A DNA stretch of 64,000 bases from a virus, in IMG/VR virus record IMGVR_UViG_3300028844_006119, positions 1 through 64,000 of that record. One strand, 5' to 3'. A program made the translations under genes and the position numbers. The first letter of the stretch is position 1. Every line of letters starts with the position of its first letter. The notes under the pieces were generated by a model. That model did not search any database and was not told the origin of the DNA. It saw only the letters and a program-made list of their open reading frames with translations. Shown here one piece after another: positions 631-34,027 of the stretch.

Positions 631-660
631 TCCTTACTACTATATTTATGCCCCTTTTTA
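631..660 (-). promoter_or_regulatory. T4-late-like promoter box (CATAAATA)
   Basis: The minus strand reads AAAAAGGGGCATAAATATAG. The same core, preceded by a purine-rich AAAARRGG stretch, recurs upstream of several minus-strand genes in this window (also near 1150-1180, 1691-1712, 5530-5560, 6246-6272 and, degenerate, 23165-23186). It resembles the T4 late promoter TATAAATA. It sits about 45 bases upstream of the start at 597. Confidence 0.65.
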
Positions 661-1147: not shown

Positions 1148-1180
1148 TGACTATATTATTTATGCCTCTTTTTAGGCGGC
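1148..1180 (-). promoter_or_regulatory. T4-late-like promoter box (CATAAATA)
   Basis: The minus strand contains AAAAAGAGGCATAAATAATA, the best-matching copy of the recurring motif. It lies roughly 40 bases upstream of the start at 1123. The AAAAAGAGG extension upstream of the core is shared with the copy at 5530-5560. Confidence 0.7.
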
Positions 1181-1690: not shown

Positions 1691-1712
1691 TCCATATACT
1701 ATTTATGCCTCG
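1691..1712 (-). promoter_or_regulatory. Promoter-like box overlapping the upstream stop codon
   Basis: The minus strand reads AGGCATAAATAGTATATGG. The TAA stop of the coiled-coil gene (1703-2362) is embedded in the CATAAATA core. The start of the MazG-like gene is only about 20 bases downstream, so the leader of that transcript would be very short. Confidence 0.6.
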
Positions 1713-2362
1713 GAACCGCCCCGATTTTCGGTAGCGTACTTGACGCCCATGATCGTGCCGATGATAGAGAAGCTGTTGGTGAGCAAGATACCGAACATGT
1801 TGCTCCAGGTATTGCCCAGGAGGGTTGTGTCTCCTGTGGACGCGGTAGGGCCGAACAGCGCAGTCGCGTACATCATGGTCGTCGTGATTCCCACACCGGC
1901 AATGACCCACAGGGCCACTCGGACGATGTTGCCCATGAGCTCAAACTGAGTCTGCTTCTGCATGAAGTCTAGGTCCGTCTCAGCGGTGGCTTTCGCCTTC
2001 TCCGCGAGGATCCGGGCCTCCTCTGCCTCCCGACGATGGGTATCGGACTGCTCTCGAGCGTCCTCCGCCTGCTCCTTTGCCTTTTTTGCTCTGTCCAACG
2101 CCGTCTGAAGCTGAGTCATCAATTCAGTATTCTTACTGTGCGCCCTCTCCAGCTCTTTCTTTTCCTCCTGGGCAGACTTGCTCACCTCTAGGCGCTGCTT
2201 CTGCTTTTCGGCATCTTTGGCCTGGGCTCTCTTTATGTACTCCTCGTACTCCGGGCGCCCCTCGTCGTCGATAAGCCGCAGGATGTTGCCGGAGATGTAG
2301 ACTTTCTTGCTTTGCGCAGTAGCGAGTAGCGCAGCCCAGGCAATTTCATCCAGCTGGATCAT
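1703..2362 (-). CDS. Coiled-coil protein with two membrane segments, third gene of the two-component operon
   Basis: 219 aa. Residues about 38-140 are a long, highly charged heptad-like coiled coil rich in Glu, Lys, Ala and Gln. They are followed by two hydrophobic segments at about 145-168 and 185-207 and a short polar tail. The start codon overlaps the stop of the response-regulator gene (ATGA), so it is translationally coupled to the signalling pair. By position it is a candidate effector or partner of the kinase and receiver, for example a membrane-anchored scaffold or pore-like protein that senses or transmits the signal. That role is inference from gene order. I recognise no family. Confidence 0.75.
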   Translation of the reverse strand: MIQLDEIAWAALLATAQSKKVYISGNILRLIDDEGRPEYEEYIKRAQAKDAEKQKQRLEVSKSAQEEKKELERAHSKNTELMTQLQTALDRAKKAKEQAEDAREQSDTHRREAEEARILAEKAKATAETDLDFMQKQTQFELMGNIVRVALWVIAGVGITTTMMYATALFGPTASTGDTTLLGNTWSNMFGILLTNSFSIIGTIMGVKYATENRGGSEA

Positions 2363-2790
2363 TGATAGACCCGGAACTCCGCCGTTCTGTCAGCGTATTT
2401 GGAGTAGTCCTCCCGGAACGCTTCTAGGCGAGGTTCGATCTCGTCACTTTTGACCAGCCAGAACTGGGCGCCGCAGTCTTTTGCTCGTTGAATCTCCAGA
2501 GTGTCCGAGGACGAGGAGATGATGCCGATGACAACACCATTGCCGTGGATCTGATTGATCCTGCGGACAAGCTCGATGCCGTCGTAGGTGCTGCCGATGA
2601 TGTTTAGATCCACGAAAACGCACTCTGGCCTATCGGTGGGATCGCTCTTCCATTCCGAGAATAGAGAGTCTGCTCGATCGGAGCTCTTTAGGGCCCGTAG
2701 GTCCAAGGCAATGCCTAGCAGAGAGCATGCGTCCTCAAAGACAAGATGAAAGAGGTCTTCATCATCTACAAGCAAAAGACTATTAATCAT
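2359..2790 (-). CDS. CheY-like single-domain response regulator
   Basis: 143 aa from the ATG at 2790. It has the receiver signature: acidic pair D9/D10 (LLLVDDED), phospho-acceptor D61 (VFVDLN), a Ser run at 92-95 in the Thr/Ser switch position, and K114 (WLVKSDE). There is no DNA-binding or enzymatic output domain, so it should act by protein contact, as CheY and Spo0F do. An upstream in-frame start at 2832 lies inside the kinase gene and is less likely. Its ATG overlaps the end of the kinase gene (ATGATTAA), and its stop overlaps the next start, making a tight three-gene operon. It is the presumed phosphotransfer partner of the adjacent kinase. Confidence 0.9.
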   Translation of the reverse strand: MINSLLLVDDEDLFHLVFEDACSLLGIALDLRALKSSDRADSLFSEWKSDPTDRPECVFVDLNIIGSTYDGIELVRRINQIHGNGVVIGIISSSSDTLEIQRAKDCGAQFWLVKSDEIEPRLEAFREDYSKYADRTAEFRVYQ

Positions 2791-4096
2791 GGGTCTGAAT
2801 CCGAATTCGAGTACCGACAGAGGCCTTCTCACAGGTGACGGAGAAGTCGTGCTCTCTTAGAATGGCTATGCAGATGTTTAGGCCTAGGCCGGAGCCTGCC
2901 TCGGTCTGCCCTTTTTTTCTAACGTAGGGCTTCGAGTATTCCTCGAACTCTTTTTTAGTCATTCCTCGACCGTTGTCGATGATGACAATGTGGTTGCCGT
3001 CCTCAGACTCTACTCTGACTACCTTTGTCTGGGAGTCGTTGTACTTTAGGCCATTTCGTATCAAGTTATCAATGGCTGTGCAAAACAGTGGACCATTTAC
3101 CTCCACCGCCGGAAGATCCCCAAGAACTACTTGGCTCTTGTAGGAGGTCGCAGAGAGATAGTCTCGCAGAAGATCTCCTAGGTCATGGACCTGCATCTCA
3201 AGCTCTGCCCCAGGCTTTACGAGGTTGGTGAACTCCTTCACGCCGCTGTAGACTTTTTGGGTGTGGGCGAGCCCCTCCTTTAGCAAGCGAAGAGGCATCT
3301 GCAGGTTCAGCTTTTCGACGATCTCGGGGCATGACATCAGACGTCTTTCCAGGGACCGAATGCCTCGAGGTATGTATGTATTGATGCCAGAGTGCATGTC
3401 GTGACGGAGGATCTTTGCGGCGTGCTCTAAGTATGTGTTTTTACTCTGCAGTTCCATTCTGTCTTGAATCTGCTCGGTGACGTCATTGGCTACTTTCAAG
3501 ATCTCAAATACCGCCCCATCCCTGGTCTTGAGAGGGATGTATGTCCCGGTGACCCACACAGACGTTCCGTCCGTCGCAACTCTCTCGTAGGTCCCTCTGT
3601 ATGGAAGGCCTTCCCTGAGCTTCTTCCAGAAGTATTTGTATGTGCGGCTGCCGCGTACCTGATCCTTTACGAAGGACGAGTGCTGCATGCCGGGCACGGT
3701 GTCCTTATCGATCTTCAACAGATCGCAGAAATATTGATTGGCCTCGATGATGGTCGCGTCCGGCTTGAGACGCACGACAATACTATTTGTGTTCACGGCC
3801 TCCATAAACAGCGCCACACTCTTCTGCTTGAAGTCCAGAACGGAGTAGAGGGCTGTCAGGTACGACACGGTACAGACCAAGTAGAGGGGGGCCATGGGAG
3901 CCCCCTCCAAGGTAGCCATTATTGGATCCATGCGGGACCCGGAGTACGCTCCGGGGTTTAGGTCATAGATCACGTCCAGGACCAGGTATGTGATCTGTAG
4001 CCCCAGCAATGTGGACGCTACGCCGGTCAGGTGCCTAAGGTTGCTCGGAAGCGACTTAAACTCCTTGGCCATTCTGACGACAAAGGATTTGTTCAT
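2783..4096 (-). CDS. Membrane PAS-domain sensor histidine kinase
   Basis: 437 aa from the ATG at 4096, which has GGAG seven bases upstream. Two membrane segments lie at about 25-44 and 67-87, then a PAS/PAC sensor at about 95-210, then a dimerisation helix with likely phospho-acceptor H232 (LRHDMHSG). The ATPase domain shows an N box (D343, N344, N348), G1 (DNGRGM at 374-379) and G2 (GSGLGL at 401-406). All residues needed for activity appear present. It would autophosphorylate at the inner membrane of the infected host and pass phosphate to the receiver encoded immediately downstream. A complete, membrane-anchored kinase paired with its own receiver is very unusual in a phage. The signal sensed cannot be read from sequence. 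Confidence 0.92.
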   Translation of the reverse strand: MNKSFVVRMAKEFKSLPSNLRHLTGVASTLLGLQITYLVLDVIYDLNPGAYSGSRMDPIMATLEGAPMAPLYLVCTVSYLTALYSVLDFKQKSVALFMEAVNTNSIVVRLKPDATIIEANQYFCDLLKIDKDTVPGMQHSSFVKDQVRGSRTYKYFWKKLREGLPYRGTYERVATDGTSVWVTGTYIPLKTRDGAVFEILKVANDVTEQIQDRMELQSKNTYLEHAAKILRHDMHSGINTYIPRGIRSLERRLMSCPEIVEKLNLQMPLRLLKEGLAHTQKVYSGVKEFTNLVKPGAELEMQVHDLGDLLRDYLSATSYKSQVVLGDLPAVEVNGPLFCTAIDNLIRNGLKYNDSQTKVVRVESEDGNHIVIIDNGRGMTKKEFEEYSKPYVRKKGQTEAGSGLGLNICIAILREHDFSVTCEKASVGTRIRIQTHD

Positions 4097-4120
4097 AGGC
4101 TCCAAGATACACCAGGGGCT

Positions 4121-4152
4121 AAGAAAAGGTGCCGGGGAACCCCCGGACACCT
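4121..4152 (-). terminator. Intrinsic terminator between the 244-aa gene and the kinase
   Basis: CCGGGG-AAC-CCCCGG, extended by GTG/CAC flanks, forms a strong hairpin. On the minus strand it is followed by CACCTTTTCTTAG, a T-rich tract. It lies about 25 bases past the stop at 4176 and just before the kinase start, which implies that the kinase operon has its own promoter or depends on read-through. Confidence 0.65.
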
Positions 4153-5528: not shown

Positions 5529-5560
5529 CAGTAGATTATTTATGCCTCTTTTTCTCCTTG
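5529..5560 (-). promoter_or_regulatory. T4-late-like promoter box (CATAAATA)
   Basis: The minus strand reads AAAAAGAGGCATAAATAATC, sharing 18 of its 20 bases with the copy at 1150-1180. It lies about 60-70 bases upstream of the start at 5470. Confidence 0.7.
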
Positions 5561-5897: not shown

Positions 5898-6101
5898 CTA
5901 CTTGCGCTCGAGGAACCCCTGCTCGTAGCACCATTCAGGCACCACCGTCGGTGGTGCCCCGTTGTTCCGCACCCAGCCCTCTGACTGGATGCAGATGCGT
6001 CGGTCCTCCCTCTCGAGGCCCTCCGGGACGGCAATCGCCATCCCGATCACCGCCGCCAGCACGGCGATGATCGGGAGGACTTCGTTGAAGCTCTCTTTCA
6101 T
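5898..6101 (-). CDS. Small single-pass membrane protein, 67 aa
   Basis: Residues about 8-25 (VLPIIAVLAAVIGMAIAV) form a clear membrane segment or uncleaved signal anchor. They are followed by a polar domain with two cysteines (RICIQSE and EWCYEQ) that would lie outside the cytoplasm and could form a disulphide. The ATG overlaps the stop of the 36-aa gene upstream (ATGA), so the two are co-translated. A role at the host envelope is likely but unspecified. No lysis family is recognisable. Confidence 0.7.
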   Translation of the reverse strand: MKESFNEVLPIIAVLAAVIGMAIAVPEGLEREDRRICIQSEGWVRNNGAPPTVVPEWCYEQGFLERK

Positions 6102-6208
6102 GAGAGCTCCTTCGTGAGGCGCAGGGCCTCACGAAGATTCTCTGCCCCGCCCTTGCGGAGCAGCGCTTCAATGCGCTGCATCTTCTTCATGCGTTCTTCG
6201 TGGGTCAT
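6098..6208 (-). CDS. Very small helical protein, 36 aa
   Basis: The ATG at 6208 has a near-perfect ribosome-binding site (AGGAGGTCGCC) and lies about 50 bases downstream of a CATAAATA promoter-like box. The peptide (starting MTHEERMKKMQRIEALLRKG) is a charged amphipathic helix. Its stop overlaps the next start by ATGA. Strong translation signals make it credible despite its size. It may be a regulator, or simply a leader that couples translation to the membrane protein. Confidence 0.7.
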   Translation of the reverse strand: MTHEERMKKMQRIEALLRKGGAENLREALRLTKELS

Positions 6209-6244: not shown

Positions 6245-6272
6245 TCCTCTACTATATTTATGACCTAAAAAG
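6245..6272 (-). promoter_or_regulatory. T4-late-like promoter box (CATAAATA)
   Basis: The minus strand reads TTTTTAGGTCATAAATATAG. The core and the trailing TATAGTAG match the copy at 631-660. It drives the 36-aa and 67-aa genes. The divergent lipoprotein gene starts about 80 bases away on the other strand. Confidence 0.65.
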
Positions 6273-6352: not shown

Positions 6353-6514
6353 ATGACTAAGTACATTCTTCCCCTGTTCGCACTGCTCCTCATTGCAGGC
6401 TGTGGCGACAAGGACGACGACACTGGCTCTGAAGATACCGCATCTGTCCCCGGAGACACCGCTGACTCGGGTGACTCCGGTGAGGACACTGGCTCGGAAG
6501 ACACCGGCGAGTAA
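6353..6514 (+). CDS. Small phage lipoprotein with Asp/Thr/Gly/Ser-rich tail, 53 aa
   Basis: The start has AAGGAGACGCT immediately upstream. Residues 1-16 are a short signal peptide ending in a lipobox (LIAG|C, lipidated Cys17). The mature part is almost entirely Asp, Glu, Thr, Ser and Gly, with repeats of the DTGSEDT type. The mature protein would be anchored to a membrane by its N-terminus and expose a flexible, strongly acidic tail that could bind calcium. Superinfection-exclusion lipoproteins are one known role for phage lipoproteins, which makes that a possibility here. The DTG-rich tail resembles surface proteins of Myxococcota-type bacteria and may point to the host lineage. Confidence 0.85.
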   Translation: MTKYILPLFALLLIAGCGDKDDDTGSEDTASVPGDTADSGDSGEDTGSEDTGE

Positions 6515-6723: not shown

Positions 6724-6799
6724 TGGTGGAGGATATCGGAATCGAACCGATGACATCCAGCTTGCAAAGCTGGCGCTCTCCCAACTGAGCTAATCCCCC
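6724..6799 (-). tRNA. tRNA-Ala (TGC)
   Basis: The cloverleaf folds fully: acceptor GGGGGAT/ATCCTCC, anticodon loop with TGC, and a GGTTCGATTCC T-arm. Discriminator A73 and the CCA end are encoded. Confidence 0.95.
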
Positions 6800-6800
6800 A

Positions 6801-6876
6801 TGGCTCCGGCAACAGGACTCGAACCTGTGACCCGCGGATTAACAGTCCGCTGCTCTACCAACTGAGCTATACCGGA
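6801..6876 (-). tRNA. tRNA-Asn (GTT)
   Basis: Acceptor TCCGGTA/TGCCGGA, anticodon loop CTGTTAA, T-arm GGTTCGAGTCC. The CCA end is encoded. It lies one base from the Ala tRNA. Confidence 0.95.
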
Positions 6877-6888
6877 ACATTCCTATTG

Positions 6889-6962
6889 TGGCTGGGGCAC
6901 CAGGGATCGAACCTGAGACGTCGGCGCCAAAAACCGAAGTGATACCGCTTCACCATACCCCA
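6889..6962 (-). tRNA. tRNA-Gln (TTG)
   Basis: Acceptor TGGGGTA/TGCCCCA, anticodon stem TCGGT/GCCGA with loop TTTTGGC giving anticodon TTG, and an encoded CCA. The upstream protein gene's stop codon abuts the tRNA's 5' end. Confidence 0.92.
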
Positions 6963-7157
6963 TTACTCCGGTTGAAGATCTGCCTCGTCGGTCCAGAAGG
7001 ACTCATATTCATAGGGGGACTTATCCTCCGGAAATGCCCCAAGCTCCGGGCTGTCCCACTTGACGAGAACAATAGTAGAGCCCTTTCCTTCTTCTCGCTG
7101 CATAGCCGTCCCCGTACCATAAGCATGGTGGGATACTCGCGTGCCTGGTTTGATCAT
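6963..7157 (-). CDS. SH3-like/CarD-like small protein within the tRNA array, 64 aa
   Basis: The N-terminus (MIKPGTRVSHHAYGTGTAM) followed by a strand-rich middle (STIVLVKWDSPE) resembles the small SH3-like folds with a G-x-x-V-x-H-x-x-YG-x-G signature seen in the CarD/TRCF interaction domain and in UvrD-type C-terminal tudor domains. Those domains contact RNA polymerase or nucleic acid. The acidic C-terminus is unremarkable. The gene sits between the Gln and Ser tRNA genes, directly against the former, so it is presumably co-transcribed with the tRNAs. A role in steering host transcription is possible, but the assignment rests only on the signature. Confidence 0.6.
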   Translation of the reverse strand: MIKPGTRVSHHAYGTGTAMQREEGKGSTIVLVKWDSPELGAFPEDKSPYEYESFWTDEADLQPE

Positions 7158-7181
7158 TGGGTCTCCAAAGAAGAGGTAAGG

Positions 7182-7269
7182 TGGCGGAGAGAGTGGGATT
7201 CGAACCCACGGTAGGTTGCCCTACACTCGCGTTCCAGGCGAGCACCTTCGTCCACTCGGTCATCTCTCC
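7182..7269 (-). tRNA. tRNA-Ser (GGA)
   Basis: Class II tRNA with a long variable arm. Acceptor GGAGAGA/TCTCTCC, anticodon stem CTCGC/GCGAG with loop CTGGAAC, encoded G73 and CCA. Confidence 0.95.
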
Positions 7270-7274
7270 TAAAA

Positions 7275-7359
7275 TGGTGCGAGAAGGGGGAATCGAACCC
7301 CCACTCCTTAAGGAACCAGATCCTAAATCTGGCGCGTCTACCAATTCCGCCACCCTCGC
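7275..7359 (-). tRNA. tRNA-Leu (TAG)
   Basis: Class II tRNA. Acceptor GCGAGGG/TTCTCGC, anticodon stem CCAGA/TCTGG with loop TTTAGGA giving anticodon TAG, long variable arm, encoded CCA. Confidence 0.95.
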
Positions 7360-7584
7360 TTAAGTGTCCCGAGTCTCACGAGCCTAAGGTTTATACTGAC
7401 ATCGGCTTCTACCTCTAAAGGTCCGTGTCGCCCTCAGATTTGTCCTGCCTGAGGTGCAGGGGCGACATAGGGGCCGCCAAGAAAAAGGGGGGCTGGGGAG
7501 ACCGTCCCGGGACGGTCTGGGTCCGGTCTCTTTTCCTTACGCATAAAAGGAGGTACGTAAGAAGGGCAGCCCAGCTCTGCCGAA
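7360..7584. other. Non-coding stretch in the tRNA array with two RNA-hairpin candidates
   Basis: No convincing gene is visible here. Positions 7426-7467 can fold into a hairpin (outer TGTCGCCC/GGGCGACA, inner CTCAG/CTGAG). Positions 7500-7517 are a perfect 18-base palindrome, GACCGTCCCGGGACGGTC, which forms a 7-base stem. On the minus strand CCCCCCTTTTTC follows about 15 bases further on. Either may be a terminator, a processing signal for the tRNA transcript or a small structured RNA. Confidence 0.4.
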
Positions 7585-7731
7585 TTATTCCTTCGGGCTC
7601 TCGGAATCCCCTGAGCACTTCTTACACCGAGTCTCCCCGTCTTTTAACTCTTCTCTGCTCCCGCAGGGACATTGGCGTACCTCCTTAGCAAGGCCTAGCG
7701 CCTCAATCAATGCGAACTTCATTTGGTCCAT
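7585..7731 (-). CDS. Small zinc-ribbon protein, 48 aa
   Basis: This small gene lies between two Leu tRNA genes. The ATG at 7731 follows GAGGGACCG, a reasonable ribosome-binding site. A short helix (MDQMKFALIEALGLAKEV) is followed by a zinc knuckle: CPC at residues 21-23 and CKKC at 36-39. The paired CxC/CxxC cysteines about 15 residues apart are what a single zinc ribbon needs. It is one of several such mini zinc proteins in this phage. The partner is unknown. The ATG of Met4 is an alternative start. Confidence 0.65.
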   Translation of the reverse strand: MDQMKFALIEALGLAKEVRQCPCGSREELKDGETRCKKCSGDSESPKE

Positions 7732-7750
7732 CGGTCCCTCGAAAGTGTAA

Positions 7751-7837
7751 TGGTGCCCCGAGTGGGAATCGAACCCACACGCCTGTACAGGCCAGGGATT
7801 TTAAGTCCCGTGCGTCTACCGATTCCGCCATCAGGGC
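7751..7837 (-). tRNA. tRNA-Leu (TAA)
   Basis: Class II tRNA. Acceptor GCCCTGA/TCGGGGC, anticodon loop CTTAAAA, long variable arm, encoded A73 and CCA. The outermost anticodon-stem pair is a C-U mismatch. Confidence 0.93.
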
Positions 7838-7841
7838 GCAG

Positions 7842-8372
7842 CTATGATGCCCTTTTAGCAGAAAGAGCTTCCTTTTTGCGGAGCTTATCCCTGCGGTGAG
7901 CCACACGAACTCCGCATTTACGGGAGCAGTACATGGATTTCTCGCGACCTCTTCCCTCGCAGGGAGGCCAGGCGCAGGATGGGAGGTCCCCTTCCTCCTG
8001 AGGCCCCGCCCAGATGAGACGCAGGTCGGGGTCTTCATCTCCAACTCGATAAGGGAATCCTGGGATCTCGGAAGGCATGAGACGGAGCATGCGCTGCTTC
8101 TCTCGGTATCTCCTATCCCGCTCTCTCTTCTTCTTTCGGGCTTCCGCCTCTTTCCGATCTTCTGCCTCCTGGAGAAGGCGAGCGGACTCAGCTTTTTCAG
8201 CTTTTTCGAAGTTTGAAGAGTACTGGAGGACATATGTCTGAACCTGAGGTTCTCCGTAGAGTCTCCAGCCACAGACATAGCATCCTAGATACACCTCGTC
8301 TCGCCAGTTCATTTTGGTGGACTGGAGATAGACGTGGTGAGATCCACATTTTTGGCAGGGGGGCTTGCGCAT
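7842..8372 (-). CDS. Protein with two zinc-finger-like ends and a charged helix, 176 aa
   Basis: From the ATG at 8372 (GGGAG nine bases upstream) the N-terminus holds a zinc ribbon (CQKCGSHH near residues 6-13, then CYVCGW about 20 residues later). A long Lys/Glu/Arg helix spans about 60-105. The C-terminal part has a second Cys cluster (CAWPPCEG, then MYCSRKCGVRVAHRR) that looks like a treble-clef or HNH-associated zinc finger, but no HNH catalytic pair is visible. Both zinc sites suggest nucleic-acid binding. It lies between the Leu and Ile tRNA genes on the same strand. Family not recognised. Confidence 0.7.
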   Translation of the reverse strand: MRKPPCQKCGSHHVYLQSTKMNWRDEVYLGCYVCGWRLYGEPQVQTYVLQYSSNFEKAEKAESARLLQEAEDRKEAEARKKKRERDRRYREKQRMLRLMPSEIPGFPYRVGDEDPDLRLIWAGPQEEGDLPSCAWPPCEGRGREKSMYCSRKCGVRVAHRRDKLRKKEALSAKRAS

Positions 8373-8458
8373 CGTCGTGTCTCCCAAAGTTATGTACGTT
8401 GGGTTTCTGAGGCAGGGGAGAGGGAGAGAGGCTCCAGCCTCTCTCCCTACTCCCGACT

Positions 8459-8644
8459 CTACTTCTCGAGATTAATGCTGGCCTTGCGGAGCGCCTTGAG
8501 GCGCTTCTCTAGGGCCAGGGTCGTCTTTCGAAGGTTCCGATTGGCGGTCTTCCAGCCGTATTCGCGAGCGTCGATCTTTTCGCAGTCGTCTTCGTGTTCT
8601 GCCAGCATCTCAATAAGTGCGGCGAGTTCGTCTAGTAGGCTCAT
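8459..8644 (-). CDS. Small coiled-coil protein, 61 aa
   Basis: The ATG at 8644 has AGAGGAAC upstream. The product (starting MSLLDELAALIEMLAEHEDD) is a charged amphipathic helix with leucines at heptad spacing and a basic second half. A CATAAAAA sequence about 20 bases before the start is a weak relative of the recurring promoter box. It lies between tRNA-Ile and the two-zinc-finger gene. No family is recognised. Confidence 0.6.
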   Translation of the reverse strand: MSLLDELAALIEMLAEHEDDCEKIDAREYGWKTANRNLRKTTLALEKRLKALRKASINLEK

Positions 8645-8667
8645 TTGTTCCTCTGTGTTTTTATGGG

Positions 8668-8741
8668 TAGGTCTGCTCGGAGTTGAACCGAGGCACTCTC
8701 GCATATAAGACGAGCGCTCTAACCGACTGAGCTACAGACCC
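8668..8741 (-). tRNA. tRNA-Ile (TAT)
   Basis: Acceptor GGGTCTG/CAGACCT with a terminal G-U pair. Anticodon stem CTCGT/GCGAG with loop CTTATAT gives anticodon TAT, which reads AUA. The 3' end is ACCC, so CCA is not encoded, unlike in the other tRNAs here. Confidence 0.9.
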
Positions 8742-8974
8742 AGATGGCATTCTTGGGTGTCCCCTGCATCATTTCGTACGCACTGCCCCAATTCCTCCGC
8801 AACCCTCAGGTAGTGCTGGTAGTTCGTAAAGAATCGGGGGTCCTTATTGGTCTGAGACAGGCGGTACCACCTTATCGCGATCCCGACGTAGTCGGGCTCC
8901 GCTACTAAGGTCTTCTTCAGTCTGGTTATGCCCAGGTTTCCCTCCTCTTTTACGGAGGTAGTTGGCCCTCTCAT
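8732..8974 (-). CDS. Small hypothetical protein ending inside a tRNA gene, 80 aa
   Basis: A reading frame with protein-like composition (for example EPDYVGIAIRWYRLSQTN and NYQHYLRVAEELGQC). Its TAG stop lies in the D-arm of the downstream tRNA-Ile, giving a 10-base overlap between gene and tRNA. GGAG precedes the start by about 12 bases, which is a weak signal. Processing of the tRNA would destroy the mRNA's 3' end, which could act as a crude regulatory link. It could also be a spurious frame. Confidence 0.5.
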   Translation of the reverse strand: MRGPTTSVKEEGNLGITRLKKTLVAEPDYVGIAIRWYRLSQTNKDPRFFTNYQHYLRVAEELGQCVRNDAGDTQECHLGL

Positions 8975-9028
8975 CGTTCAATCTCCGGAGGGTTGGTAGA
9001 TCCCACATCTCAGTGTCCTCAAGTAAGG

Positions 9029-9105
9029 TGGTACCCCGACCTGGACTCGAACCAGGGACCCTCGGCTTAGAAGGCCGATGCTCTATCCAGCTGAGCTACC
9101 GGGGC
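9029..9105 (-). tRNA. tRNA-Arg (TCT)
   Basis: Acceptor GCCCCGG/TCGGGGT, anticodon stem TCGGC/GCCGA with loop CTTCTAA, T-arm GGTTCGAGTCC. CCA is encoded. It reads AGA, a rare codon in many GC-rich hosts. Confidence 0.94.
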
Positions 9106-20945: not shown

Positions 20946-22244
20946 CTACAGTTCGGGGTTGATGCACTCATTTTCTGCTTTGTCTTCCCGCACCACGATG
21001 AAGCGAGGGAACTGCAGAGCGTCTGTCTTGTCTCCGCGAGACCTGTAGGTCCGCGACTCGTACTTGACCTGGACGACCTTGGGCCAGCTGTCCGTAGTCG
21101 AGTTGCTCTCGATGAACTGCTTGCTCCAGCCGTTGCCCATGTCGCAGATCTTCACAGTCTCCCCCAGATGGTTGATCTGAAAGAGCTCGACCGATCCCAA
21201 CTTGCCGGTGTACTTCCCTCGGCCATAGGCTCCGATCCCGTTGTCCGGGTCCCATAGCGCAATGAAATCATCCTCGAATACCGGCTTGATCTTTGCGCAG
21301 GCATTTCTCGGACGCTCTGCCTTGCCTCGAAGATTGAAGCCGCGATCCCCGTAGCTTTCGTTCGGATCGATGGCTACGAAGCCCTCCCATTTGCGGAAGT
21401 GGGCTAACTCCATGATCTCTTCCAAGGTCTCTGGGTACTCTCCCTCGACAAAGATCTCCGGGCACACAAGGTGGGACGCACTATTTGCAAATTCCTCGGC
21501 CCAGTCCAGTCGGATGGAGATCTTGGTGGTCCCTAGGAGCTGATGGCCATCCATCCAAGCCACGTCCCAGATGACATACCGAAGAAGGTCCGCGTCGTTC
21601 TGATGCTGAAGGGCCTTGTCCGTCTTGCTCTTCAGCACCTTGGCTACGTTCCACCGATCGTCCTCGTCGGATGCCCCGATGATCTCCCCCAGGAGGATGG
21701 TCCCGTTGGGAATAGTTGGCTGCTCGATGTCCCGGACAATTTGAGGAAACCGAGCCGTCCACGGGATGTCCGGCTCGAGGTGGTGATGGGGAAGCATCCT
21801 GCGTGAGTACATCTCACACCGACCTTCCAGGGTCTTTCGGACGACCATCATCTCGCCGTCGTACTTCCGAAGAAGCCACGCCTCCGATTGCTCAATCTTC
21901 TGCTTCATGGTCGCAGTGATCGAGTTGAACGGCTTGTAAAAGCAAAGGTTCGTGGGGAGCGTCTCCGCAGAGATAACGTCCACCTCCCCCTCGTCCGACT
22001 CCGTTCCGACCTCTACATAGCCCTTCCGGGTCTTCTTCAGGACCATCCGCTCTGCCAGGAGAACGGCGTCCTCCTCTGCTGTCATCTCGTTGGCTCGGCC
22101 AACGTTCTTAGGCTCTCCGAGATCGACGACCTCTTGCATTTTGCCGTCTAACTGCCCAAACTGGGTGTGGATCTCATTGCCGAATACGGCGATACTCCAT
22201 ACCCTCACTGCACCTGTACGACTCGTGTTACGAAATTCTCGCAT
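20946..22244 (-). CDS. ATP-dependent DNA ligase with N-terminal WGR domain
   Basis: 432 aa. The start follows GGAGGTAATTA. Residues about 12-77 fit a WGR domain (VWSIAVFGNEIHTQFGQLDG... TRKGYVE), although the central Trp-Gly-Arg reads Phe-Gly-Gln. The nucleotidyltransferase follows: motif I KYDGE with adenylated K127, motif III around E197 (LLGEIIG), motif IV E287-G288, and motif V K318-x-K320. A C-terminal GKYTGKLGS stretch leads into an OB fold. It would seal nicks during replication, repair or recombination. WGR domains bind nicked DNA ends in PARPs, so this one may target the ligase to nicks. RNA ligase activity is less likely given the OB domain. Confidence 0.85.
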   Translation of the reverse strand: MREFRNTSRTGAVRVWSIAVFGNEIHTQFGQLDGKMQEVVDLGEPKNVGRANEMTAEEDAVLLAERMVLKKTRKGYVEVGTESDEGEVDVISAETLPTNLCFYKPFNSITATMKQKIEQSEAWLLRKYDGEMMVVRKTLEGRCEMYSRRMLPHHHLEPDIPWTARFPQIVRDIEQPTIPNGTILLGEIIGASDEDDRWNVAKVLKSKTDKALQHQNDADLLRYVIWDVAWMDGHQLLGTTKISIRLDWAEEFANSASHLVCPEIFVEGEYPETLEEIMELAHFRKWEGFVAIDPNESYGDRGFNLRGKAERPRNACAKIKPVFEDDFIALWDPDNGIGAYGRGKYTGKLGSVELFQINHLGETVKICDMGNGWSKQFIESNSTTDSWPKVVQVKYESRTYRSRGDKTDALQFPRFIVVREDKAENECINPEL

Positions 22245-22264
22245 TAATTACCTCCGAGTTCTTT

Positions 22265-22492
22265 ATGACCGATAAAAGCCAGATACTAAAAGACGCCGAC
22301 ACAGAGATCGACGCCTTCGAGAAGTGGTTTCGAGAGCAAGGGGCAGAGCCCCTCGCAAGATTTGAGAAGGCCATCCTGAAGACCTTTCTTGTCGCAAAAG
22401 CGACTGAGAAGTTCAGAGCAACTTCTCCCCCAGAGGAGTCGGGTACATCATCTCCGACAGCTCCGGGCCACAGCCACTACCTTCTTCCGTAA
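22265..22492 (+). CDS. Small hypothetical protein, 75 aa
   Basis: The start lies 20 bases from the ligase start on the opposite strand. There is no clear ribosome-binding site. The first 50 residues form a credible helical protein (DTEIDAFEKWFREQGAEPLARF, then KAILKTFLVAK) like small phage proteins I have seen near structural genes. The Ser/Pro/Thr-rich tail overlaps, tail to tail, the end of the minus-strand gene at 22413 by 80 bases and may be an overrun. It is the only plus-strand gene in this island. Confidence 0.5.
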   Translation: MTDKSQILKDADTEIDAFEKWFREQGAEPLARFEKAILKTFLVAKATEKFRATSPPEESGTSSPTAPGHSHYLLP

Positions 22493-22814
22493 TGGCCGGC
22501 AGATACCCCTCTGACTTCTCCTTCGCAGTGGAGAAGTATTCAATCAGTTCCTGGGATACAGACCCTGCTATCGCTGCGCCTTGACCGTCCACGGCCCATT
22601 GGAGCCAGCTGGACACATAGATGCCCAGTCGGGGGTCATAGCGAACCGCCAAGGCCTCCGCGTCATGCTCCGCTACCTCGACACAGCTAATGGCCCAAAA
22701 GGGGAATCGGCCCCCATCACGGGGGCCAGCCCCACACTTCGGGCACTGGTAGAGACCTTCTGCGATCTCTACCAGCCTGTGTCCCCTGTTGAGGGGACAC
22801 AGCATCAGGCCCAT
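22413..22814 (-). CDS. Zinc-finger-like hypothetical protein, 133 aa
   Basis: From the ATG at 22814 the N-terminus has CPLNRGH followed by CPKCGAG about 20 residues later, a rubredoxin- or zinc-ribbon-like site. The rest is mixed, with aromatic residues (GIYVSSWLQWAVDGQ) and a polar tail. Its start overlaps the end of the membrane-protein gene upstream. It converges with the small plus-strand gene (overlap 80 bases). No family is recognised. Confidence 0.6.
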   Translation of the reverse strand: MGLMLCPLNRGHRLVEIAEGLYQCPKCGAGPRDGGRFPFWAISCVEVAEHDAEALAVRYDPRLGIYVSSWLQWAVDGQGAAIAGSVSQELIEYFSTAKEKSEGYLPAITEEGSGCGPELSEMMYPTPLGEKLL

Positions 22815-23149
22815 CTCGAGGGCTGCAGGCGCGTAATGCGCCGGATTTCCGGGATGTGGTCTTGCGGCTTTTGGCACGTCCCCATCCACCACGCCGCCTC
22901 CTGCGGCGTTAGCCGGACAGACTTTCCTCCCCAGGCAGGGTCGCCTGGGGGAACCTCTACCCATTCCCGAGGGGGTACCTCTCTCTCCTCCAGCTCCTCC
23001 CCCGACTGCTTAGCCGCGTTCCCTACGCACGCTCTCTTGAAGAGCTCCATGTTCCTCGCGGCTTCCTCGTCCATCTTTTCGTTCTCGTCCAGTAGCCAAT
23101 TGGCTACTGGACCGACGACCATCATGGTCGCGGTGATTACTCCAAGCAT
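22805..23149 (-). CDS. Small membrane-anchored protein, 114 aa
   Basis: The ATG at 23149 has a perfect ATGGAGGTAAC ribosome-binding site. Residues 3-20 (GVITATMMVVGPVANWLL) form a membrane anchor, and the remainder is a charged cytoplasmic or periplasmic domain with Trp-rich segments (REWVEVPPGDPAWGG; AAWWMG). The protein resembles single-pass small phage proteins only in general layout. A degenerate CATAAGTA box upstream (23160-23190) may drive the whole minus-strand island through the ligase. Confidence 0.65.
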   Translation of the reverse strand: MLGVITATMMVVGPVANWLLDENEKMDEEAARNMELFKRACVGNAAKQSGEELEEREVPPREWVEVPPGDPAWGGKSVRLTPQEAAWWMGTCQKPQDHIPEIRRITRLQPSRWA

Positions 23150-23159
23150 GTTACCTCCA

Positions 23160-23190
23160 TGTTTGCGGTACACTGTACTTATGCCTCCAA
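23160..23190 (-). promoter_or_regulatory. Degenerate copy of the CATAAATA promoter box
   Basis: The minus strand reads GGAGGCATAAGTACAGTGTAC. The GGAGGCATAA part matches the other copies, and the core differs by one base (CATAAGTA). The small palindrome GTACACTGTAC overlaps its downstream side. It lies about 30 bases before the start at 23149. Confidence 0.5.
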
Positions 23191-31400: not shown

Positions 31401-32473
31401 CGGAGGTTTCTTGGTCCGGAGCAGAGACTTGGGCTGTGGTCCGGTTCAAGGTCGCCCTCCCCGAACAGGGCCGGAAGCAGTTTCTCTCCTTTAAGGCGGG
31501 TCTTACTGAGATCACCCTCATGGAGATGTCCAGGTCTTCGGCTTACCCATTCACAAAGGATGTGGAAGAGCATAAGGCCTTGGCGGCGTTTGGGGAGATG
31601 AGTGAGATCTACGACATAGGCGCCATTCAGTCAGATCCGACTGGAAGGTTTGCGCCAGTGCAGATTGATGTCCCTGTGCTTTTGCCGGGAGATACCCTCA
31701 CTATTGCGTATAAGGGGTCTTCGGGATCTGTAGCGGGCAGCCGGGATCTGCCCATTGAGGAGGCTATTAGGCCCCCATTCATAGACAAGGGTGTGTACAC
31801 CAATGCGCCGTCAGAGGAGGAGGGGTACTCCAAGATAGACTTGCTTTATGGGCATCTCTTTGGCTCCCCTTCGGTCATCCATAACCTACTCCTGGCGGGG
31901 GCTACTCCGTACGACGGCATGGATATCCACTCAGTGGAGCAGGCCGTTGACTACATCGTGGCGACTGCTAGTATTCAGGAGGGAACTCAGCAATCATACG
32001 TTTCCGCGTTGACCAGCAGGAACATTGCAAGCCTGCCTGACATTTTGGCCCCTAAGGGGTGGAAGCCTAAGCCCGCCTCAGAAGGGGGGTACCTGTGGGA
32101 GTACGACGCAGGCACCAGCGCCAAGGACATCAAACTCACCGGCGGGTTCCACTCCAACGCCGTCACGGGGAAGAGCCACATAGGCCTTAAGGGGGTCTCT
32201 GAGATCTCCGAGGTCGGGCAGAAGCTGAAGTTTGGCTCTCGTCTGGAGTTCCTGGACCTAGAGACGACCCGGGAGCTGGGCTCTCGTTTGATGCCCGAGG
32301 AGAAGGTGACCCTTGGCGAAGACACCTCAATCCGACTAGACCCTAGAGCGCCCCGCGCGAAGAGGGTTACCGAGTACTTGCAGGATATTGGTGGAACTTC
32401 TGCTCTCCGTAAGTTAGACTTTGGGTCTACTGGATTTACTACGACGCCGGACGGCCGAGGAGGAAAAGGATGA
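28487..32473 (+). CDS. Baseplate hub-like protein with embedded M15-type peptidase domain, 1328 aa
   Basis: The N-terminus (LRCFLEGIEVPVIGASVTSQ; ATANIQIVPSDR; LMFCGEVFDTSIG) follows the layout of gp27/gpD-type hub proteins. At about residues 372-425 an insertion reads FAITSGYRNMEQQQALN, then RRAHTAGFAIDIA. This matches the SGYR...HxxGxAxD motif of M15 D,D-/L,D-carboxypeptidases, with His and Asp as zinc ligands; the third ligand is not identified. That domain would cleave peptidoglycan cross-bridges during entry. The remaining 900 residues are long beta-rich and alpha/beta segments without recognised domains. At 1328 aa it is much longer than classical hubs. A GGAG site precedes the start. 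Confidence 0.65.
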   Translation: MALTGTGGAHYLHLRCFLEGIEVPVIGASVTSQLNAPATANIQIVPSDRLATLLPRTTVHLFFLDSVTFAGRGEGAEPDDHDYRLMFCGEVFDTSIGKSGHGSRSASLRCMDFSNVWDTNYSYIMRYAVGAQETAEGGAILKNVSGFVGGGGTNNGSGNSNPFDDIVNSPADVIARMATASGAGNPAAPGKGTVLGGLLAVLELLSGIQGLYIGINPWATVHERRCRVMDSLVSDNGTTAKSLFDQQVFADWLQQRTGTAASVISFRQIINLILGYIYYDVVTNVTPSYFAGDNGAGLPGRDVPEWKVSAGGPAEEGGESDALSLSELTNMGPVPRGKVAGLDSTFWAYCTEVLTKLSELCATQKFKSGSMAGKPIRFAITSGYRNMEQQQALNDKKAADGKGKKATRRAHTAGFAIDIAAIGIGATGTMPYMKGEKGSTMGKPIPIEVAAGPKTNATKRFRAALFALEMQQGPIINASITDFDDLLKKIRAHENTLSKCFVNEAGLAVAEATVRNAAQFWKLYGEAVKAVNKTTKTGIRGWWGGDWKTATDPLWGMFGVGLDPVHVEDEDWDGKTASTLGGFAPPTEVSAVLRKGESRETLKSFIFRPNIWFCAPPLCNVVLPHMYETMSVSRQMMRETTRLQLDAFNQFFESNVLNTFYYAPQFQAAEGKTSANHVMGEGMGSVTKTIVMDHEVFSGIIPKMERISEISFYAKQSGQGSELRVTDSGEVEASSAQATIVDYGERVAHYNFLTHRFAARSGSFGGPFNPYLVCGFPAVLVDSVPSLSKEEDRAGVLQSIAEGERPSTKVHWLGTIESLSHTYDQSGARTTAQLKYVRSHRTGDNTDDLLAESVTDQGIFKIQDADYSPAIGDGAVAWPVTSVKTMTAEHQKKLEDFKDAWIFQYVAKTVGGSLEKLSQSFLIKLYSGIPPEKDDVPPADQYRALGPNTADKSKEKVSVDASIKSPTGTEITEVSWSGAETWAVVRFKVALPEQGRKQFLSFKAGLTEITLMEMSRSSAYPFTKDVEEHKALAAFGEMSEIYDIGAIQSDPTGRFAPVQIDVPVLLPGDTLTIAYKGSSGSVAGSRDLPIEEAIRPPFIDKGVYTNAPSEEEGYSKIDLLYGHLFGSPSVIHNLLLAGATPYDGMDIHSVEQAVDYIVATASIQEGTQQSYVSALTSRNIASLPDILAPKGWKPKPASEGGYLWEYDAGTSAKDIKLTGGFHSNAVTGKSHIGLKGVSEISEVGQKLKFGSRLEFLDLETTRELGSRLMPEEKVTLGEDTSIRLDPRAPRAKRVTEYLQDIGGTSALRKLDFGSTGFTTTPDGRGGKG

Positions 32474-32706
32474 TTTCTCAGGACATGCTTCAGGCATTCA
32501 ATGAGGCGCTGCTCAAGGAAGCTGTTGCCCCTCCGGCTGCGGCAGCGAAGATGAGTGGCAAGATGAAGGGACTTCTGGGCCTCGGAGCTGCTGCCGGCGT
32601 GGGAGCGGGAGTTCTCGGAGAGCAGGCCAAGGATGATATCGTCCAAGGACGGCTGTCCAGAAAGCAGATGGCTCGCGGCCAGGGCGTTCACCACCTGCTT
32701 ACCTGA
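32470..32706 (+). CDS. Small putative internal protein with membrane segment, 78 aa
   Basis: It overlaps the hub stop by ATGA. The N-terminus (MISQDMLQAFNEALLKEAV) contains L15-K16-E17|A18, the T4-type prohead cleavage motif. After a Pro/Ala linker comes a Gly/Ala-rich hydrophobic segment at about 34-50 (LLGLGAAAGVGAGVLGE) that could insert in a membrane. The C-terminus is basic. Cleavage would release a small hydrophobic peptide from a propeptide. It may be an internal head protein. Confidence 0.55.
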   Translation: MISQDMLQAFNEALLKEAVAPPAAAAKMSGKMKGLLGLGAAAGVGAGVLGEQAKDDIVQGRLSRKQMARGQGVHHLLT

Positions 32707-32713
32707 GAGTCTC

Positions 32714-32968
32714 ATGAGCGACAAACACAGTCTTTTCCAGAGATCCCCGGAGGCCCTTCTCAGTGAAGGTGCCGAGCGATCTAACGTGGCCGTCACCAAT
32801 CAGATGCTGGACGACTTGTTCTCCAGAAGAGATGTGATGGGGAAGAAGGCGTATTCCCAGCTCCGCTCCCTGTTCACGGGCAAGGAGCACTATGGGCGCA
32901 ACACTCGCCTCGGCATGTCCGCGAATGAATCCTCTAAGCTCGTAAATCGGGCCTTTAGTGGTGAGTAG
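32714..32968 (+). CDS. Small putative internal protein, 84 aa
   Basis: The ATG at 32714 lies eight bases after the previous stop, preceded by GAGAG. Residues 15-19 (LLSEG) include L16-S17-E18|G19, another match to the T4-type prohead protease consensus. The mature part is helical and basic (RSNVAVTNQMLDDLFSRRDV). Its end overlaps the sigma-factor start. The shared N-terminal motif with the neighbour and with two genes near 16 kb suggests joint packaging. Confidence 0.55.
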   Translation: MSDKHSLFQRSPEALLSEGAERSNVAVTNQMLDDLFSRRDVMGKKAYSQLRSLFTGKEHYGRNTRLGMSANESSKLVNRAFSGE

Positions 32969-33791
32969 CCTGAGAGATAGGCTGCAGAAGATCGCAGCGA
33001 AGGACCCCTACGAGTTTCCCAAGACGTGGGGCACCAAGGATCGCAAGACAGGTGAGGTTACCCCTTTCTACGGTAAAGCCGCGAAAGAGGTAACTATGTG
33101 GAGGACATGGAAGGAGTCCGGGGAAGATCCCGACCACCTTGCCCCTCTTCTCCAGTCTCTAAATCCTGTGATCAACAGTAATGTTCTGCGCCACCGCGCC
33201 CCACGCATTCACAAGCCGGTGATAGAGGCCGAGGCTCGAACTCTCACCGTGAAGGCACTGCGGAGGTACAACCCCTCTCGGGGGACCATGGTCTCCTCCC
33301 ACGTACACAACAATCTGAAAGGTCTGAACCGCTTTGTAAAGAAGCACCAGAACTTCACACGCATCGTGGAGACTCAGGCCAATAAAATTGGTGATTACGA
33401 CAGGGCAAAATCCTCGTTGGCAGAGGAGCTGGGCAGGGACCCAACTACCTTAGAGATCTCGGACAGAATTAAGTTGTCCCCGAAGAAGGTGGCGCGTCTC
33501 GAGAAGGAGCTCCGTAAGGACAAGTTCTCTGCACTGCCCTCTGACGATATGATCAGTGCCAACCCTTTCGAGAAGACGCTCCCTGAATCCCGAGAGATCA
33601 TTGAGATGCTCCCCTACGAGCTCACAATGAACGAGCAGGCGGTGTTCAACCACCTGTACGGGCGTGGCGGCTTTCGCAAGGACCGGATGACCAAAAGTAT
33701 CGCCAAGAAGTTGGGCTGGTCGGAGTCCAAGGTATCGCAAGTAAAGAACTCCATTATCAAGAAGTACCACGCGTACGAGGACTCTTTTTAA
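32958..33791 (+). CDS. Phage-encoded sigma-70-family RNA polymerase sigma factor
   Basis: 277 aa with a GTG start overlapping the previous gene. Region 2-like: LNPVINSNVLRHRAPRIHKP followed by ALRRYNPSRGTMVSSHVHNN and the basic/aromatic FVKKHQN stretch that contacts the -10 element. Region 3-like: LAEELGRDPTTLEIS then LSPKKVARLEKEL. Region 4-like: LTMNEQAVFNHLYG then KSIAKKLGWSESKVSQVKN, a clear helix-turn-helix for the -35. Phage sigma factors redirect host RNA polymerase to late genes, for example T4 gp55. The recurring CATAAATA boxes resemble T4 late promoters and are candidate targets, although they precede non-structural genes here. There is no region 1. The length is near the 230-300 of group 3 sigmas. 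Confidence 0.85.
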   Translation: MVSSLRDRLQKIAAKDPYEFPKTWGTKDRKTGEVTPFYGKAAKEVTMWRTWKESGEDPDHLAPLLQSLNPVINSNVLRHRAPRIHKPVIEAEARTLTVKALRRYNPSRGTMVSSHVHNNLKGLNRFVKKHQNFTRIVETQANKIGDYDRAKSSLAEELGRDPTTLEISDRIKLSPKKVARLEKELRKDKFSALPSDDMISANPFEKTLPESREIIEMLPYELTMNEQAVFNHLYGRGGFRKDRMTKSIAKKLGWSESKVSQVKNSIIKKYHAYEDSF

Positions 33792-34027
33792 TGGCCGTGT
33801 CCGACATTGGCGAGCTCATAGATCTGATAGAGGACGAGCTGCAGCCCGTGCTCGACGAGGAGGAAAAGCGCCTTGTTGAGGAGGCACTGCTCCTAAAGCT
33901 AGTCTACGAGGGTATGACAGGAACGGCGTTTTCTGATAAAACACCCACAGAGGTAGCCGAGGCGTTCACCGTCCGGTTCATCACAGAAATGGCAGTAACC
34001 GTGGCCCCGGCAGTGGAGCCGGAATAG
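33791..34027 (+). CDS. Small acidic hypothetical protein, 78 aa
   Basis: Its ATG overlaps the sigma-factor stop (TAATG). The protein is acidic and helical (IGELIDLIEDELQPVLDEEE; LVEEALLLKLVYEGM). Co-translation with the sigma factor raises the possibility of an anti-sigma or co-regulator role, as in T4 where gp33 partners gp55. That is inference from position and acidity only. Confidence 0.6.
   Translation: MAVSDIGELIDLIEDELQPVLDEEEKRLVEEALLLKLVYEGMTGTAFSDKTPTEVAEAFTVRFITEMAVTVAPAVEPE

What the first reader, a model, noticed from the sequence alone, without database searches (positions are those of the whole stretch)
32958..33791. Phage sigma factor linked to internal-protein genes and a candidate partner of the CATAAATA boxes
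A full sigma-70-family protein with regions 2 to 4 is encoded between tail genes, next to two small proteins with prohead-cleavage-like N-termini and a small acidic protein translated from its stop codon. The window's recurrent promoter box is a natural candidate target. If the sigma factor is packaged, it could start a transcription programme immediately on infection.
Basis: partly seen in the sequence, partly recalled or inferred. Interest (0 to 1): 0.68.

Follow-up and report, generated by a model that had tools for sequence, protein, structure and literature searches.

The report
Sigma subunit of packaged phage RNA polymerase
This virus gene encodes a sigma factor that most likely travels inside the virus particle with the virus's own RNA polymerase and switches on its early genes at infection, so a whole lineage of large phages may carry a ready-made bacterial-style transcription enzyme.

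Summary
The ORF at 32958-33791 is a real sigma-70-family protein. The same 142-kb virus record encodes a fused beta-beta' RNA polymerase (84606-90944, outside the window) with an intact catalytic motif.

Sigma and RNAP are inseparable. All 18 records of at least 120 kb that carry this sigma family carry the RNAP. All 21 found through the RNAP carry the sigma. Both genes lie on the same strand in all 38 distinct records.

Published virion mass spectrometry of Salmonella phage Arash found the homologous sigma (Gp10) beside both RNAP subunits, at similar spectra per residue. Its second sigma (Gp196) is not listed.

The five CATAAATA boxes are local copies of a lineage-wide promoter box, G(G/T)(T)(C/T)ATAA(G), with an A-rich -35-like element. 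It lies opposite the sigma/RNAP/structural genes in 220 of 235 hits across nine genomes.

Best reading: sigma is made late, packaged with the phage RNAP, and directs early transcription on entry. The family, the pairing and packaging in a homolog are shown. Packaging in this phage and box recognition are inferred. The lineage and the Arash and YerA41 proteomes are known. New here: the universal pairing, the fused version and the early regulon.

The parts
32958..33791 (+). sigma-70-family factor, 277 aa (GTG start at 32958 or 32961); sigma-2 about aa 40-134, sigma-3 138-188, linker, sigma-4 209-276; N-terminal tag MSSLRDRLQKIAA
28487..32473 (+). large tail hub / hydrolase protein; its homolog precedes the sigma gene in all nine genomes compared
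32470..32706 (+). 78-aa protein with head-tag-like N-terminus; small genes in the same slot of G001 and G002 (MISRAVFQGFFAELDKMA, MRFDQYVPAFVDELEKIA) look alike
32715..32968 (+). small conserved ORF just before sigma (84 aa from the ATG at 32715), 66% identical over 53 aa in G001; no clear tag in this phage
33791..34027 (+). 78-aa acidic ORF starting in the sigma stop codon (TAATG); a small gene in this slot of Arash (gp11) is in virions, homology to it not shown
643..652 (-). early-type promoter box GGCATAAATA, 55 bp before the start of ORF 37-597
1157..1166 (-). early-type promoter box GGCATAAATA, 43 bp before the start of ORF 680-1123
1700..1709 (-). early-type promoter box GGCATAAATA upstream of ORF 1259-1681
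5537..5546 (-). early-type promoter box GGCATAAATA
6255..6265 (-). early-type promoter box GGTCATAAATA, 57 bp before the start of ORF 6098-6208
22263..22270 (-). box GGTCATAA, 26 bp before the start of ORF 20946-22244
23178..23185 (-). box GGCATAAG with upstream AAAAA, 36 bp before the start of ORF 22805-23149

Best explanation
The ORF encodes the sigma subunit of a virion-carried RNA polymerase holoenzyme made by the phage. The core is a fused beta-beta' chain encoded at 84606-90944 of the same record. Both proteins are encoded on the structural-gene strand, are presumably made late, and are built into the particle, perhaps with help from an N-terminal head-targeting tag on sigma. On infection the holoenzyme enters with the DNA and transcribes early genes from bipartite promoters: A-rich -35-like element, about 18 bp, then G(G/T)(T)(C/T)ATAA. 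The five CATAAATA boxes are examples. Most relatives carry a second, more canonical sigma; in several of them the structural strand has its own box (TAAAATA or CTATACT), so a two-sigma early-late switch is likely in those. Shown: sigma family, RNAP, universal pairing, promoter class with strand bias, packaging of the homolog in Arash. Inferred: packaging in this phage, sigma-box recognition, timing.
For: Sigma identity. RNAP with NADFDGD and five RNAP Pfam domains at E<=8e-6; beta' clamp-helix and beta flap regions align to cellular enzymes without deletion of the sigma-docking parts. Pairing: sigma to RNAP 18/18 records >=120 kb, RNAP to sigma 21/21, same strand in all 38; among named phage records the sigma is found only in Arash, D69, D148 and D181, which all carry this RNAP. 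Virion MS of Arash (PMC10585845): beta 3516 spectra (most of any protein), beta' 1210, sigma Gp10 467 with 24 unique peptides; spectra per residue 2.3, 2.0, 2.0; second sigma Gp196 not listed. Conserved slot after the hub gene in nine genomes. Promoter box: top enriched upstream word in eight of nine genomes and tied for top in G000, on the non-structural strand in 220 of 235 hits, bipartite; in 30 further records 510 opposite against 120 same, reversed control 193 against 209. N-terminus of sigma matches head-module protein 109180 (MSSLRDRLQKIAA / MSSIRDRLEKIAA; 0 of 300 shuffles). G000 and G001 have only one detectable sigma yet have the box.
Against: No protein or transcription data exist for this phage. 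In the window phage alone the box is weaker (19 against 7.7 expected on the - strand). Four of 30 further records lack the strand bias. The Arash particle list contains enzymes that look like carry-over, as its authors say. The tag match is not significant in the nearest relative G001. No alpha subunit was identified in the phage. 'Early' is inferred from gene content and strand, not from expression timing.
Confidence: 0.72

Rival explanations
1. The sigma is a conventional late or middle factor that redirects host RNA polymerase to phage promoters; its presence in particles is carry-over.
For: Most phage sigma factors are thought to act on the host core (for example jumbo phages without RNAPs, PMC7598289). 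Carry-over enzymes are seen in the Arash particles.
Against: Perfect pairing with a phage RNAP. Its unique-peptide density in virions is that of the capsid protein, while most non-structural enzymes are far lower (one RNA ligase, gp143, is an exception). The second sigma is not listed.
Confidence: 0.13
2. The early boxes are read by host sigma-70 as extended -10 promoters; the packaged holoenzyme reads something else.
For: TGGTATAAG and TGTTATAAG in some genomes resemble TGnTATAAT.
Against: The base after ATAA is G in 148 of 163 sites of the seven non-CATAA genomes and T in only 7, although sigma-70 needs T there; no TTGACA; an A-rich element sits at the -35 position; G038 uses GGTAAAAG and G000/G001 use CATAA; the same box recurs in genomes of 44-61% GC.
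Confidence: 0.2
3. In most relatives the second sigma reads the early box and the packaged sigma reads the late box.
For: Most large relatives have both sigmas, and two kinds of box exist on the two strands in several of them.
Against: G000 and G001 lack the second sigma but keep the early box, and no late box was found in them. Late boxes appear only in genomes with the second sigma. A sigma already in the particle would be present at the start of infection.
Confidence: 0.12
4. CATAAATA is a T4-type late promoter (TATAAATA-like) read by a gp55-like factor, as its similarity suggests.
For: Resemblance of the octamer to the T4 late -10 box (own knowledge).
Against: All copies drive non-structural-strand genes, none lies before structural genes; TATAAATA itself is absent from the record; no other sigma-like gene was found.
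Confidence: 0.03

Closest known systems
mReC lineage (multi-subunit RNAP-encoding Caudovirales), Weinheimer & Aylward 2020, PMC7481178
   Same: Tailed phages with full beta and beta' RNAP clearly homologous to cellular enzymes; genome size and metagenomic origin alike
   Different: That paper does not mention sigma, promoters or virions. Here RNAP is a fused chain, with an obligate sigma and a promoter class. Formal membership by RNAP tree was not tested
Salmonella phage Arash (OQ632216), PMC10585845
   Same: Homologous sigma (Gp10) in the same tail slot, homologous split RNAP (Gp206, Gp216), same early box; RNAP and sigma found in virions
   Different: RNAP split; has a second sigma and a TAAAATA late box; the paper reports no promoters and treats packaging as one of two options
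Yersinia phage YerA41, PMC7354516
   Same: Phage RNAP subunits and a late-expressed sigma factor detected in particles
   Different: Its record matches neither our sigma profile nor PHROG 351, so its sigma is not a detectable homolog; RNAP only about 26% identical
Virion RNA polymerases of N4, phiKZ/AR9 and P23-45
   Same: Same logic: enzyme made late, packaged, transcribes early genes on entry
   Different: As described, these enzymes do not use a sigma-70-family subunit (N4: single-subunit; P23-45: fused to tape measure, no clamp); here a cellular-type core is paired with a real sigma
FliA/SigF-type alternative sigma factors
   Same: Weak sequence hits (1rp3, 1l0o); a TAAA-type -35 and a G..ATAA -10 at similar spacing resemble FliA promoters
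   Different: No orthology shown; box differs (GGTATAAG, not GCCGATAA)

Membership tests
sigma-70 family | regions 2, 3 and 4 in order | tested here: met
   Sigma70_r3 above cut-off; PHROG 351 across aa 99-271; Foldseek hits to sigma factors over about 256 columns, though whole-chain TM-score is only 0.3 because domain placement is uncertain
sigma-70 family | core-binding and promoter recognition activity | not testable with these tools
   needs protein
cellular-type multisubunit RNAP (mReC-type) | beta and beta' domains with DFDGD catalytic motif | tested here: met
cellular-type multisubunit RNAP (mReC-type) | branches with mReC RNAPs in a tree | not tested
   only pairwise and profile similarity to lineage members
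virion RNA polymerase system | polymerase and factor present in purified virions | tested here: inconclusive
   met for homolog Arash by published MS; no data for this phage
virion RNA polymerase system | promoters in front of early genes distinct from late promoters | tested here: inconclusive
   box opposite to structural strand; different boxes on the structural strand in five relatives, none found in this phage. Expression timing not tested
FliA/sigma-28 group | orthology and TAAA-N15-GCCGATAA promoter | tested here: not met
   only E 0.1 hit to FliA; box differs
T4 gp55 late-sigma system | TATAAATA boxes before late genes | tested here: not met

The most novel reading that the evidence does not exclude
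An entire lineage of large phages carries in its virions a complete sigma-dependent RNA polymerase holoenzyme of cellular type (fused into one ~2100-aa beta-beta' chain in a sublineage), reads its own early promoters on entry independently of host polymerase, and later switches to a second sigma for late genes.
Probability: 0.5. Interest if true: 0.85.

Novelty: new variant of a known kind. Interest (0 to 1): 0.72.

Why it matters
Virion RNA polymerases described so far work without a bacterial sigma. A packaged holoenzyme with a true sigma would give a second solution to host-independent early transcription, a minimal sigma-dependent polymerase (one core chain plus one sigma, no alpha identified) for structural work, and a handle on a deep-branching RNAP lineage used in tree-of-life arguments. 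It turns the mReC 'orphan' RNAP into a testable transcription programme with predicted promoters, testable in the isolated Salmonella phage Arash or the Vibrio phage D69.

Tried and rejected
(1) Host core as partner: set aside after finding the phage RNAP and the perfect pairing. (2) CATAAATA as a T4-like late box: rejected by strand and gene context. (3) YerA41 sigma as homolog: profile and PHROG searches found nothing. (4) Second sigma in G000/G001: none by PHROG 351, Pfam region 2 (G000 only) or a profile of second sigmas. (5) Random 16-mer scan to get large control contigs gave none of 120 kb or more; named phages without this sigma served as control instead. (6) The automatic motif fit drifted into A-rich sequence for G000, so a curated list was used. 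(7) Early boxes in front of the sigma gene itself as a feedback loop: seen only in Arash (11588), not in the other eight. (8) The N-terminal tag as a universal feature: clear in G000, weaker in G001/G002, absent in others.

Full report
What is at the coordinates. The ORF 32958-33791 (+) encodes 277 aa; the start is GTG 32958 or GTG 32961. Pfam Sigma70_r3 matches above its cut-off, and PHROG 351 (sigma factor) matches residues 99-271. Regions 2 and 4 are too divergent for Pfam. In an AlphaFold2 model built from 26 relatives (mean pLDDT 80) they appear as helical blocks at 40-134 and 209-276, and Foldseek returns sigma factors as best hits, E 2.9e-8. Domain placement is uncertain (pTM 0.47), so the whole-chain TM-score is low.

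The overlooked partner. The window is bases 1-64000 of a 142,186-bp IMG/VR virus record. Outside the window, 84606-90944 encodes a 2112-aa fused beta-beta' RNA polymerase with NADFDGD and Rpb2/Rpb1 domains up to E 1e-65. It follows a likely portal gene. Regions equivalent to the beta' clamp helices and the beta flap, where sigma docks in cellular enzymes, are present.

The pairing is universal. Forty IMG/VR loci carry relatives of the sigma. Of those records plus Arash and D69, all 18 of at least 120 kb carry the RNAP; those without it are fragments of at most 117 kb. Starting from the RNAP, 21 of 21 records of at least 120 kb carry the sigma. Sigma and RNAP lie on one strand in all 38 distinct records. 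Among 50,697 named phage records, the sigma appears only in Arash, D69, D148 and D181, which are also phage records with full-length RNAP of this type. The sigma gene sits just after the same hub gene in nine of nine genomes, sometimes with one or two small ORFs between.

Packaging. The Arash paper (PMC10585845) lists virion proteins by mass spectrometry. RNAP beta (Gp206) is the most detected. beta' (Gp216) and the homologous sigma (Gp10: 100% coverage, 24 unique peptides, 467 spectra) are present; the second sigma (Gp196) is not listed. Spectra per residue are 2.3, 2.0 and 2.0 for beta, beta' and sigma. Unique peptides per 100 aa place sigma with the capsid protein and far above most replication enzymes; one RNA ligase is an exception. 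The authors left carry-over open. YerA41 (PMC7354516) also has RNAP subunits and a late sigma in particles, but that sigma is not a detectable homolog. In the window phage, the sigma N-terminus MSSLRDRLQKIAA nearly equals that of the head-module protein at 109180 (MSSIRDRLEKIAA; no shuffle of 300 reached the score). A [LIVMF]EKxA motif is enriched 11.5-fold in the first 40 residues of structural-strand genes and absent there on the other strand. A head protease and a capsid protein are encoded nearby. Whether the tag targets proteins to heads is inference.

The boxes. CATAAATA occurs five times in the record, all on the - strand at 0.6-6.3 kb. An unbiased count of upstream 8-mers gave, as top word, GGTATAAG or an overlapping word in five genomes, GTTATAAG in D69, GGTAAAAG in G038 and CGTCATAA in G001; in G000 AGGCATAA ties for top. 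Fitted models show an A-rich element about 18 bp upstream in most. The base after ATAA is G in 148 of 163 sites of seven genomes, unlike sigma-70. The box is on the strand opposite to sigma, RNAP and structural genes in 220 of 235 hits in nine genomes, and in 510 of 630 hits in 30 more records, where the reversed control shows no bias and four records are exceptions. Six other RNAP phages without this sigma show no overall bias (37 against 40). The - strand of the window phage holds DNA polymerase A, DnaB-like helicase, RecA and gyrase B genes. On the structural strand, other words are enriched: TAAAATA in Arash, G004 and D69, CTATACT in G003 and G038, none found in G000 and G001. A second sigma exists in nearly all relatives but not in G000 and G001.

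Mechanism. Sigma and RNAP are encoded with late structural genes, at least one relative carries them in virions in near-equal amounts, and the lineage-specific promoter class faces the other way, towards replication and small early-type genes. The simplest account is a packaged holoenzyme that starts early transcription. The steps shown are the genes, their pairing, the promoter class and packaging in Arash. The steps inferred are packaging here, recognition of the box by this sigma, and timing.

What is known and what is new. The RNAP lineage was described in 2020 without mention of sigma (PMC7481178). RNAP plus sigma in virions was listed for Arash and YerA41. I found no paper, in the open-licence library searched, that connects them, reports the universal pairing, or describes the promoter classes. 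The fused beta-beta' version with an N-terminally extended sigma is limited to G000, G001 and G002 among the genomes examined.

Noticed in passing
record G000 84606-90944 (L006:606-6944): Fused beta-beta' RNA polymerase of 2112 aa next to the likely portal gene; split into separate proteins in most relatives.
   Followed up: yes
window 2359-4150, - strand: Phage-encoded response regulator receiver protein and PAS-containing histidine kinase side by side, unusual cargo for a phage.
   Followed up: partly
Arash, G004, D69 (TAAAATA) and G003, G038 (CTATACT), structural strand: Separate promoter-like boxes upstream of structural genes, present only in genomes with a second sigma.
   Followed up: partly
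record G000 104384, 109180, 122595, 122879 and others: Recurrent N-terminal motif (FxDExEKxA, RDRLEKIA) in head-module proteins, like a capsid-targeting tag.
   Followed up: partly
window 6353-6514 +: Small lipoprotein-like ORF with an acidic, T/D/S-rich tail (MTKYILPLFALLLIAGCGDKDDDTGSEDT...), a possible host clue.
   Followed up: no
window 6724-9105: Eight tRNA genes on the - strand.
   Followed up: no
Arash gp217 (OQ632216 141261-142679): DNA helicase encoded right after beta' is in virions at the same spectral density as RNAP; may travel with the holoenzyme.
   Followed up: no
record G000 133397-135322 -: Full DNA gyrase B-like topoisomerase subunit encoded by the phage.
   Followed up: no
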